Assembly: GCA_022571365.1 (NCBI GenBank)
Contig: JACZXZ010000020.1
Location: 1 to 34,192 of the forward strand
Direction of reading: 5' to 3'
Length of the DNA: 34,192 nt
Source of the DNA: Pseudomonadota bacterium
GTDB taxonomy: Bacteria > Pseudomonadota > Alphaproteobacteria > G022571365
Position 1 is the stretch's first letter. Every line of letters begins with the position of its first letter. The position numbers and the translations under genes are program-made. This document shows, one piece after another, positions 7,143 through 9,958 of the stretch. A model generated the notes under the pieces. It was not told where the DNA came from, searched no databases, and saw nothing but the letters and a program-made list of their open reading frames with translations.

Positions 7143-7209
7143 GCTAGGCGAGCAGCCGCTCCGCCGCCTTGAGGTCCTCGGGGCGGTTGGCGTTGAAGAA
7201 GGGGTCGAC
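7143..7209 (-). pseudogene. Remnant of a mobA 3' end
   Basis: The minus strand reads [19 protein letters not shown] and then LA and a stop, matching the C-terminus of the intact MobA encoded at 8748-9395. About 50 bases are nearly identical to 8782-8840. Upstream of the match the similarity stops abruptly and the low-GC 483-residue gene begins. It reads as the displaced end of a former mobA, or of a duplicate. Confidence 0.75.
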
Positions 7210-7241: not shown

Positions 7242-8693
7242 TCAGGATTTAGTAGCGGGCGAGTCGGGCTCAGCTTCAGCGGACGCAGTCTCCAGGAAAG
7301 CGCGCCAGTCCGTGGCCTCTGCGAGCACGCCGTTGGTCGTAAACAGAGCCTTGACAACCTTTTTGCGTCGGCTTGGATTGGTGCGCGCTTCCAGCGAGAG
7401 ACCCAATAACTGGAGGCCCGTTAGCGCACAGACCGGAGCGCGGGTAATGGTACGCGTAACAGAGTTTGGAAAGTCGGGCTCCGTCCGTTCGAGCAGCGAC
7501 TTCTGCCGAAAGGTTCCTATCACCATGATACCGTGACAATCCGTCGGAACATCCGGACCTTCGAGTGGTATCCCCAACTCGGCTAGCTTGTCTGCGTACT
7601 GTGCTAAGTCCGGATCGTTTTTTCGTTCCTCCGGCGAACTGGTAAGCGTCGCCAAAACGTCCATCCGCCAGCGTTCACATTGCCGTAAATTGCTCTCCCT
7701 GGCAGGGCCGTCTAAACCCTTTGCTTCTATAGCTGCAAGCTGAGCCCCGTCCCAAGAGAGGAGGTCAGCGCGAGGCTTCGGTCCGTGAACCACCTTGAGG
7801 TTTATCTCCTCAAACGCCTCCTTTACGGCCAAGACAAAGTCGTCGCCGGTGCTCGTAAAAAGCCGCTTCGCTGGCTGCGCTGCTTGAACGATTGCCTGTT
7901 GGGACTGAATTCGTTTCTCCAGTTGTGCAACTTTAGCTTCGAGCCGCGCGATCTCTGTCCGCGCGGCGGGCTCGTCCGGCAGCCGGAACGCGTCAGCCCA
8001 AGGAGGAAGTTCGATATCGCCATCACCGAGACGATTCGGGAGCGCGATGAGTGCTTTAAGGTAAGGTTCTACTCGTTTGGGATCGTCCCAGTACGCGTCG
8101 GACCAGTTGGGCCGCGGGAGAAAGATAACGACGCCAACACCGAACCGGCGCCAACCGCCAACCAGTTGCGGCGAGCCAGGCCGAGCTGTCGAAACCCGCA
8201 GCAAAGGCGAAAGGTCAGAACTTTTGAGCACAACTTCATACTGCGGGGCGCTAAGGACTGCTTGACACAACTCTCGTGCAGGCCCTGGACCGCAGAAATT
8301 GATCATGCGGCCACGTACTGGTCTCCAACGCGCCCAACTAAAAGGAGCTACACCAGACAGCGAAAATTCGTTCTTTTCCCTTTGGTCTATATCCCAATAT
8401 AGAAATGTGGGCGGCCGGCACGTGTGTATAATGAGGGAGTTGCCTCGTTGCACCCAATCAAGGATCGTTTCTAATCGTTGCTCGATTATTTTGGATAGGT
8501 CCGTGCCGTAAGACCAGTCTAAGGGCTTAGCAAGATCAATATCAAATTGACTCTCCAGATCTTCCAGAAACGTCGCCGGCGTCCAGACTATCTGCTGGAT
8601 TTCAGCTAGATTTATATCGGTGAAAAAATCGCCAGTTTGGAAGTCGCCGACGGGATCAACAAATCCGATTAAAAGAACACGACTCTGATCCAT
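7242..8693 (-). CDS. Unknown 483-residue protein with a PD-(D/E)XK-like C-terminal domain
   Basis: I do not recognise the family. Residues 1-220 look like an alpha/beta domain with hydrophobic strands (SLIIHT near 88, VGVVIFLP near 186), perhaps a Rossmann or amidotransferase-like fold. Residues 240-270 are a predicted coiled coil with leucines in register (ARLEAKVAQLEKRI). Residues 285-345 resemble a restriction-endonuclease fold: a helix AVKEAFEEI, then D310 and E323-A-K325, fitting D-(12)-ExK. A cysteine/tryptophan-rich helix follows. No signal peptide or membrane segment is seen. GC is lower than in the flanking genes, and the gene sits between intact mobA and a mobA 3' remnant, so it is probably acquired. 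Start ATG 8693 lies 54 bases from the mobA stop. A role in defence or in a mobile element is an inference. Confidence 0.7.
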   Translation of the reverse strand: MDQSRVLLIGFVDPVGDFQTGDFFTDINLAEIQQIVWTPATFLEDLESQFDIDLAKPLDWSYGTDLSKIIEQRLETILDWVQRGNSLIIHTCRPPTFLYWDIDQREKNEFSLSGVAPFSWARWRPVRGRMINFCGPGPARELCQAVLSAPQYEVVLKSSDLSPLLRVSTARPGSPQLVGGWRRFGVGVVIFLPRPNWSDAYWDDPKRVEPYLKALIALPNRLGDGDIELPPWADAFRLPDEPAARTEIARLEAKVAQLEKRIQSQQAIVQAAQPAKRLFTSTGDDFVLAVKEAFEEINLKVVHGPKPRADLLSWDGAQLAAIEAKGLDGPARESNLRQCERWRMDVLATLTSSPEERKNDPDLAQYADKLAELGIPLEGPDVPTDCHGIMVIGTFRQKSLLERTEPDFPNSVTRTITRAPVCALTGLQLLGLSLEARTNPSRRKKVVKALFTTNGVLAEATDWRAFLETASAEAEPDSPATKS

Positions 8694-8747: not shown

Positions 8748-9395
8748 TTAATCTACCGATGGCTTCCCAAGGTAGGCAAGCGCTTCTTCCGCCGCCTTGA
8801 GGTCCTCGGGGCGGTTCATGTTGAAGAAGGGGTCGATGGGCTCGGCCGGGAATTCGACCTCGATGAGCCGGTAGCGGGCGGTCCAGACGTCCACCTTGCG
8901 GACCTCCTCCGCGACCAGGGCCCGGCGCAGCGCGTCGGCGAGGCTGACCGGCCAGAGCCCGAAGACCGGATGGGCCCGTCCGCCGGAGGCGGCGCAGGCC
9001 ATCTCGGCGTGCTCGGCCGCGAGGGCATCGACCATGCGCTGGACCATGTCGGTGGGCAGGAACGGCGCGTCGGTGGCGAAGCTCGCGACCCACTCGCATT
9101 CAGGCGCGTTCCGGGCCGCCCACTCGAGCCCGGTCAAGACCCCGGCCAAGGGACCGGCGAAGCCCTTGACCGCGTCGGCCGTGACCGGAAGGCCGTAGGA
9201 CGCGAAGCGCGCCGGATCGCCGTTGGCGTTCAGCACCAGCGCCGAGACCTGCGGCCGGGCGCGTTCGATCACGCGCTCGAGGAGGGTCCTGCCGCCGAGC
9301 GCGCGCAGGCACTTGTCGCCGCCGCCCATGCGCCGGGACAGCCCGCCGGCGAGCAACACGCCGGCGACTGCCAGCGAGAGGTTGCGATCGCTCAC
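8748..9395 (-). CDS. mobA: Molybdenum cofactor guanylyltransferase
   Basis: Transfers GMP to molybdopterin to make the guanine dinucleotide cofactor needed by formate dehydrogenase; cytoplasmic. The N-terminal nucleotide-binding signature is clear: [15 protein letters not shown] from about residue 14. FATDAPFLP near residue 105 carries the metal-binding aspartate, and the C-terminal NRPEDL motif is typical of MobA. The 215-residue length is normal. The start is GTG 9395, sharing the four bases GTGA with the stop of the GIY-YIG gene, so the two are coupled. On the minus strand the order is fdhD, GIY-YIG gene, mobA, so fdhD and mobA were probably direct operon partners before the GIY-YIG gene entered. 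Its GC content is high, unlike both flanking accessory genes. Confidence 0.9.
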
Positions 9396-9958
9396 GTCAC
9401 GTCGCTCTTTTGTTGGAGCCTTTTTACCCCAAGTAATTGGATGATTTCTCTTGCGCCTTTGTTTTGGAACGTAACTGGCGGCAAGTCTCGCGGATAGGAA
9501 ACTGAACGTTCATTGTCGCATTTCAAACGCGGATTGTCTTCAGCCCGACGCATAAGTTGGTCAATCAAGAGGCTTTCCACCTGCTTTGTAAATTGGTCAT
9601 CGATACACGTATAATAAAACTGAATACGTTTCACCTCTTCTATTGCAATGAGAACTTTGTTATCGACATCGTTTAGACTCTCACAAAGCTCTTTTGTTCT
9701 ATAAGCGTAACAGCTATTCTCGTCGTATATCCAGTATCCAAGACCTAATGTCGATACAAAGTGTGTTCTAAACCGAGTCATAAGGTTATTACGCGTACTT
9801 CCTGCCCTTCCCGCATACGCTACAGTTAACCCTCTCCTTGGATATTTTCTTAGGTAAATATAAACGCCGGGCTTGGCCAGTTGTGTCTCCAATTGTCTAG
9901 TGGAAGGGAGCCTCGGGATTCTCAATGGCCCGTGCCACTCTAAGTCGATGGTTCGCAT
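9392..9958 (-). CDS. GIY-YIG nuclease-like protein
   Basis: A 188-residue protein with a GIY-YIG-type domain: GVYIY at 31-35, then VAYAGRAGS at 46-54 in place of YIG, a following arginine region (R56, R62, R64), and a candidate metal-binding E128 in the helix QVESLL. These are the family's main catalytic elements. The C-terminal 55 residues are unassigned and lack an obvious DNA-binding motif. GC content is much lower than in fdhD and mobA, suggesting transfer. It starts 44 bases after fdhD and overlaps mobA by four bases, so it is embedded in a cofactor operon. It could be a homing-type or defence nuclease, or a domesticated gene. No inteins or introns are visible beside it. Confidence 0.7.

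What the first reader, a model, noticed from the sequence alone, without database searches (positions are those of the whole stretch)
7242..8693. Unrecognised 483-residue three-part protein
An alpha/beta N-terminal domain, a coiled coil and an ExK nuclease-like C-terminal domain (D310, E323, K325) are joined in one protein. The combination of a possible sensing domain with an effector-like nuclease resembles the layout of defence proteins. Fold assignments are by eye.
Basis: inference. Interest (0 to 1): 0.6.

Follow-up and report, generated by a model that had tools for sequence, protein, structure and literature searches.

The report
Solitary sensor-nuclease, probably anti-phage
A lone, probably horizontally acquired bacterial gene encodes a DNA-cutting enzyme domain tied by a coiled coil to a likely sensing domain; distant relatives ride in prophages and plasmids next to anti-virus genes, so it is probably an unnamed kind of phage-defence protein.

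Summary
The ORF is real, 483 codons, but on the MINUS strand (ATG 8693, stop 7242). No Pfam, NCBIfam, PADLOC or PHROGs family matches at a usable score. Walking outward by profile gave 21 very distant relatives (16-20% identical) in alphaproteobacteria, Fusobacterium, Streptomyces, Synechocystis, enterobacterial plasmids and prophages. A nine-row profile without P0001 or P0004 still finds P0001's C-terminal part at E 1.4e-4, best of 996 shuffles 8.3. The predicted catalytic residues hold: E323 22/22, K325 22/22, D310 20/22. P0001's own low-confidence model gives mainly restriction-endonuclease-fold chains, best Z 7.0; a better model of a prophage relative gives class I amidotransferase-like folds for the N-terminus (Z 12.1) and FokI/BspD6I for the C-terminus (Z 10.7). 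Three P2-like prophages read carry the gene at the gpA-gpQ site, a known defence hotspot (PMC9122126). Best reading: a solitary sensor-nuclease, probably anti-phage, Shedu-like in logic, in no library searched. Function untested. In the window it is a low-GC3 insert (0.56 versus about 0.91) behind a duplicated mobA end.

The parts
7242..8693 (-). The gene: 483-aa sensor-coiled coil-nuclease protein (P0001)
   Evidence: GC 0.55, GC3 0.56
8034..8693 (-). N-terminal alpha/beta domain, residues about 1-220, probably class I amidotransferase-like fold without conserved catalytic Cys
   Evidence: fold seen on relative L045 only; P0001 model under pLDDT 50 here; boundary approximate
7881..7970 (-). 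Coiled-coil helix, residues 242-271
   Evidence: DSSP of model; DUF7310 coiled-coil match at E 0.14 only
7389..7877 (-). PD-(D/E)XK nuclease domain, residues 273-435
7764..7766 (-). Codon of D310, putative metal ligand
   Evidence: 20 of 22 D, 1 E (P0004), 1 S (P0003, which has a D one place earlier)
7725..7727 (-). Codon of E323, putative metal ligand
   Evidence: 22 of 22
7719..7721 (-). Codon of K325, putative catalytic lysine
   Evidence: 22 of 22
7539..7640 (-). Insertion of about 30 residues (within 352-385) in the nuclease domain of P0001, absent or much shorter in the other 10 rows
8748..9395 (-). mobA-like gene directly upstream on the same strand
   Evidence: ORF; name by eye; GC3 0.91
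7145..7208 (-). Remnant copy of the mobA 3' end ([21 protein letters not shown] and stop) on the far side of the gene
   Evidence: 64-nt direct repeat, 84%; translation
8773..8836 (-). Matching segment inside the intact mobA 3' end

Best explanation
P0001 is a solitary, horizontally acquired defence nuclease. The N-terminal alpha/beta domain (probably a non-catalytic class I amidotransferase-like fold) and the coiled coil make a dimer or higher oligomer and sense an infection cue (a phage protein, a nucleotide or a DNA end). Sensing releases the C-terminal PD-(D/E)XK domain, in which D310 and E323 hold Mg2+ and K325 activates water, to cut phage DNA or, as abortive infection, all DNA in the cell. 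Shown: the frame, the homology of the C-terminal region, conservation of D/E/K, the fold match, the mobile or prophage setting of relatives. Inferred: N-terminal fold in P0001, oligomer, sensing, DNA as target, defence.
For: Homology without P0001 or P0004 in the profile: E 1.4e-4 against best shuffle 8.3; with P0004, 1.6e-6. Catalytic residues 22/22, 22/22, 20/22. Four relatives each brush a different PD-(D/E)XK Pfam family in the same stretch, all below cut-off: AHJR-like, CoiA_nuc, Mrr_cat, Hjc. Fold comparison. Setting: three P2-like prophages with the gene between portal and replication genes (L043, L044, L045; genes named by eye), the place described as an anti-phage hotspot with old and tin (PMC9122126, passages read); directly after pifC and a KAP NTPase on a Klebsiella plasmid; beside a KAP NTPase with weak QatA similarity in Fusobacterium; after a STAND_TPR protein on a Streptomyces plasmid; in a Pantoea phage-plasmid. 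A lone low-GC gene in the window and in G354 (0.52 in 0.67).
Against: No assay. No PADLOC model matches P0001, P0003, P0004 or the eight other relatives scanned at a meaningful score. P0001's link to the family is thin: a full-length profile of eight enterobacterial and cyanobacterial members gives E 2, and dropping P0005 as well as P0004 gives E 0.015 with a shuffle at 0.12. Only the C-terminal half is linked by sequence. No recognised defence gene was noticed next to P0001 in the window, and P0003 lies among ordinary genes with host-like GC. P0001 model mean pLDDT 38.8.
Confidence: 0.55

Rival explanations
1. A solitary restriction-type enzyme acting on modified or foreign DNA (Mrr/McrBC-like logic), where the N-terminal domain reads the DNA rather than a protein or nucleotide cue.
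For: Mrr_cat is one of the subthreshold matches (P0009); McrC and AspBHI are among the fold rows; no methyltransferase is annotated next to the relatives opened.
Against: The N-terminal fold of the relative is amidotransferase-like, not a known DNA-reading domain; no helicase or McrB partner is conserved.
Confidence: 0.17
2. A repair or DNA-metabolism nuclease (Hjc- or EndoMS-like) without a defence role, carried by mobile elements for their own replication or recombination.
For: EndoMS and Hjc score about as high as any row for P0001; Streptomyces P0009 lies beside an ATP-dependent DNA ligase and near dnaE.
Against: Sporadic: 3 of 385 genomes of the class when searches are put together, the window's own included; sits at a defence hotspot in the P2-like prophages; very divergent.
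Confidence: 0.1
3. A superinfection-exclusion or anti-plasmid factor of mobile elements, or an addiction gene, rather than a host defence gene.
For: Most relatives sit in prophages, phage-plasmids or plasmids.
Against: P0001, P0003 and P0004 sit in stretches without a recognised mobile element; no antitoxin partner is conserved.
Confidence: 0.18

Closest known systems
Shedu (SduA) defence nucleases
   Same: Solitary gene, variable N-terminal region joined to a PD-(D/E)XK nuclease (recalled); a Shedu nuclease chain, 8ti9, is one of the fold rows for P0001 (Z 5.8, rmsd 5.8, 148 aligned).
   Different: No Shedu model of PADLOC or Pfam matches; many other PD-(D/E)XK nucleases score as well or better; an amidotransferase-like N-terminus is not a Shedu feature that I know of.
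FokI / R.BspD6I type IIS cleavage domains
   Same: Best C-terminal fold matches: P0001 to FokI 2fok Z 7.0; relative L045 to R.BspD6I 2p14 Z 10.7 and FokI 1fok Z 10.5.
   Different: No recognised DNA-recognition domain or methyltransferase; identity 8-17%.
Class I glutamine amidotransferase-like domains (GMP synthase, IFT52 N-terminus, uncharacterised GATase1-like proteins)
   Same: Fold of residues 2-257 of the relative L045, Z about 10-12.
   Different: No conserved nucleophilic Cys: P0003 and P0004 have none at the corresponding strand end (by eye); no synthase partner seen.
CBASS effector Cap4 and CRISPR effector Can2
   Same: Sensor domain plus PD-(D/E)XK nuclease in one chain (recalled); among the fold rows (Can2 Z 6.1, Cap4 Z 4.4).
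   Different: Their sensors are SAVED or CARF domains (recalled); no cyclase or CRISPR locus is annotated in the neighbourhoods opened.

Membership tests
PD-(D/E)XK nuclease superfamily | Acidic residue plus (D/E)-X-K on neighbouring strands, conserved | tested here: met
   D310 20/22, E323 22/22, K325 22/22
PD-(D/E)XK nuclease superfamily | alpha-beta-beta-beta-alpha-beta core | tested here: met
   H283-296, E300-303, E310-314, E319-325, H332-351, E387-392 in the P0001 model, blocks 341-390 at pLDDT 66-87 but whole-model mean 38.8; fold rows mainly of this superfamily, best Z 7.0; relative L045 Z 10.7 to R.BspD6I
PD-(D/E)XK nuclease superfamily | Metal-dependent nuclease activity | not testable with these tools
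   needs an assay
Shedu | Match to the Shedu profile (DUF4263 / SduA) | tested here: not met
   no such match in Pfam or PADLOC for P0001 or the relatives scanned; that PADLOC holds SduA and Pfam DUF4263 is recalled
Shedu | Nuclease fold close to solved Shedu | tested here: inconclusive
   8ti9 Z 5.8, tied with many other nucleases
Class I glutamine amidotransferase | Fold | tested here: inconclusive
   met by relative L045 (Z up to 12.1); P0001's own N-terminus not modelled
Class I glutamine amidotransferase | Conserved Cys-His-Glu triad | tested here: not met
   no Cys at the expected place in P0003 and P0004 (by eye, alignments); His and Glu not examined
Known anti-phage systems of PADLOC-DB 2.0.0 | Profile match | tested here: not met
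   none at the limits used for P0001, P0003, P0004, P0005, P0006, P0008, P0009, P0012, P0014; P0011 and P0013 only E 0.0045 and 0.0026 to Cas8a and PDC-S02

The most novel reading that the evidence does not exclude
A widespread, so far unnamed family of single-gene immune nucleases in which a catalytically dead amidotransferase-like domain serves as the infection sensor of a PD-(D/E)XK nuclease, spread over at least four phyla and carried by phages at their defence hotspots.
Probability: 0.4. Interest if true: 0.7.

Novelty: new variant of a known kind. Interest (0 to 1): 0.55.

Why it matters
It ties an orphan gene to a diverse family that the Pfam, NCBIfam and PADLOC 2023 copies searched do not hold, gives that family a catalytic motif, a layout and a likely role, and points to an amidotransferase-like domain as a possible immune sensor. 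The family's prophage members are easy to test in laboratory E. coli.

Tried and rejected
No close relatives: tblastn of P0001 in plasmids and phages (at E 10 one chance-level plasmid row), genome contigs twice (no confirmed locus), viral contigs with P0001, P0003, A2, A4, A8, A14 (none confirmed); A10 gave 4 loci and A17 gave 11, of which four are contigs already seen (L051, L052, L054, L061), so seven new. E. coli complete genomes: no DNA match to the L045 gene.

Rejected hits: L003, L004, L005 (L004 and L005 judged unrelated by eye; L003 not read, three stops inside), L006 and L007 (the ORFs of L006 look unrelated; L007 not read), the 16 weak rows besides P0003 itself (they match the N-terminal part of P0003, in part upstream of its likely true start; not read one by one), L027 and L028 (not read), L030 (transposase by eye), L050 (not read). 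P0003 is not found by the A16 profile at E 0.01 although P0001 finds it directly at 2.4e-6. P0004 was first found at E 0.005 in one of 385 genomes, a level where chance rows are expected; it is kept because a profile without it and without P0001 finds it at 9.7e-7.

Fold search of the relative against viral models is led by unrelated GTPases with TM-scores of 0.1-0.2, so it says nothing; restriction endonucleases appear from rank 8 on. L044/L054 is an interrupted copy and was left out of the 22 counted. Of the 22 rows, L056/L057 are 99% alike, P0006/L053 90%, L043/L046 86%, P0010/L053 81%. P0007 is P0008 with a longer start and was not counted. In A16 the L043 and L045 rows begin inside the domain because I cut them too short. 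Streptomyces rows H25 and H26, nine Pantoea rows (H19-H23, H27-H30; C-terminal tail only, one opened), the short Klebsiella rows H31-H33, and H12 and H34 were not added to the alignment.

Literature: searches only; no paper held names the four relatives' accessions tried, which does not show that the family is unpublished. Of PMC9122126 I saw passages only; the Shedu-related papers were seen in a listing only, and what I say of Shedu, pifA, P1-like and N15-like elements is recalled.

Full report
Check of the observation. The open frame at 7242-8693 lies on the minus strand, 483 codons, ATG at 8693. Read from the sequence, GAGGA stands just before the ATG. The gene is compositionally foreign: GC3 0.56 against 0.91 for mobA and 0.92 for fdhD.

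Setting in the window. On the minus strand the order is fdhD (10884-10003), P0002 (9958-9392, 188 aa, GC3 0.45), mobA (9395-8748) and the gene (8693-7242) (fdhD and mobA named by eye). A 64-nt direct repeat, 84% identical, joins 7145-7208 to 8773-8836. It is the last part of mobA: the far copy still reads [21 protein letters not shown] and a stop, the near one [29 protein letters not shown] and a stop. So the gene lies between a whole mobA and a second, orphaned mobA end, as if it came in together with a new 3' end of mobA. No integrase was noticed; how it came in is open.

Family. Library scans of P0001 gave nothing usable, nor did PDB sequences. In 385 genomes of the class, P0001 found P0003 in G064 at 2.4e-6; the two-row profile A2 found P0004 in G354 at 0.005. 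P0004 led to Fusobacterium P0005, which led to Klebsiella, Serratia and Streptomyces proteins, and P0006 to Pantoea, Synechocystis and more Streptomyces. A steered pattern gave four prophage loci, and a second scan seven more contigs. Putting together, 3 of the 385 genomes of the class hold a member, the window's own included.

Is the link of P0001 to the family real? A profile of 13 members without P0001 and P0003 ranks P0001 first of 800 entries, E 1.3e-4, beside the same frame from the window. The nuclease part alone, ten rows, gives 1.6e-6, best shuffle 2.4. Without P0004 too, nine rows, 1.4e-4, best shuffle 8.3. Against: without P0005 as well, 0.015 with a shuffle at 0.12; eight enterobacterial and cyanobacterial members alone, E 2. 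These matches lie between residues 241 and 417; the N-terminal half has no such link, apart from the P0003 match that starts at residue 177.

Catalytic residues. In the alignment of 22 members E323 and K325 are 22/22 and D310 is 20/22; Q338 is 19/22, R403 21/22, G326 19/22. Some members are close to each other (four pairs over 80%), so the counts are not all independent.

Fold. The P0001 model from four rows is poor overall (mean pLDDT 38.8) but has helix 283-296, strands 300-303, 310-314 and 319-325, helix 332-351 and strand 387-392, the order of a PD-(D/E)XK core. Its PDB rows are mainly nucleases of that fold, best FokI Z 7.0, rmsd 4.6, 149 aligned; Z under 8 can be a common arrangement, so it is the run of like entries that counts. 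Four relatives graze four different nuclease families of Pfam in the same stretch, all below cut-off. The prophage relative L045, ten rows, mean pLDDT 70.0, matches 4-amino-4-deoxychorismate synthase (Z 12.1), anthranilate synthase, GMP synthase and other class I amidotransferase-like domains over residues 2-257, and R.BspD6I (Z 10.7, rmsd 3.5, 143 aligned) and FokI over 299-516. Cys is absent at the expected strand end in P0003 and P0004 (by eye), so I take the domain as non-catalytic.

Surroundings of relatives. L043, L044 and L045 carry the gene between a portal gene and a replication gene of P2-like prophages (genes named by eye; L046 not read). Rousset et al. describe that place, between gpA and gpQ next to cos, as a hotspot of anti-phage systems that holds old and tin in P2 (PMC9122126, passages). 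Seven further viral contigs hold it, in other surroundings (neighbours by eye). Klebsiella michiganensis: directly after pifC and a KAP NTPase, an Abi family protein four genes on. Fusobacterium: beside a KAP NTPase with weak QatA similarity. Streptomyces NBC_01520: after a STAND_TPR protein, E 3.5e-242. Pantoea: in a plasmid with portal, head processing, lysis and ddrA genes. Synechocystis, Streptomyces F12 and S. anulatus: no defence gene next to it is annotated as such, apart from a DEAD/DEAH helicase two genes on in S. anulatus. G354: a single gene of GC 0.52 in 0.67; G064: GC like its surroundings.

Mechanism. Most likely a sensor-nuclease: the N-terminal domain and coiled coil hold the nuclease in check or in an oligomer, an infection cue releases it, and it cuts DNA. 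Shown are the nuclease family, its residues and the mobile setting; sensing, oligomer, target and defence are inferred.

Verdict. The kind, a solitary sensor joined to a PD-(D/E)XK nuclease, is known (Shedu is the nearest in logic, recalled); the family is in none of the libraries searched and the amidotransferase-like N-terminus is, as far as I know, new in this role. New variant of a known kind.

Noticed in passing
7145-7208 and 8773-8836: The end of mobA is duplicated on either side of the gene (64 nt, 84%), as if an insert brought a new mobA 3' end and left the old one stranded with its stop codon; no integrase noticed.
   Followed up: partly
9392-9958 (-): A second foreign-looking gene (188 aa, GC3 0.45) between fdhD and mobA, with a GIY-YIG-like start by eye; only a weak PADLOC match to PDC-S14 (E 0.005). 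It overlaps the mobA start and may have come in with the gene under study.
   Followed up: partly
L032 2627-6762: On a Klebsiella michiganensis plasmid a family member follows pifC and a KAP NTPase (the place of pifA, recalled as T7 exclusion), with an Abi family gene nearby: a possible compact defence cluster.
   Followed up: partly
L031 2832-6693: Fusobacterium vincentii: family member, KAP NTPase with weak QatA similarity and a 329-aa protein with an HELGH metalloprotease-like motif (by eye) lie together.
   Followed up: partly
L038 1382-6858: Streptomyces sp. NBC_01520 plasmid: family member directly after a 1263-aa STAND_TPR protein (PADLOC, E 3.5e-242).
   Followed up: no
L042 4001-4336: In nine Pantoea plasmid records only the C-terminal tail of the Klebsiella-type protein is matched (about 39%), in the one opened as a short separate gene of 93 residues: perhaps a decayed member or a free-standing tail domain.
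   Followed up: no
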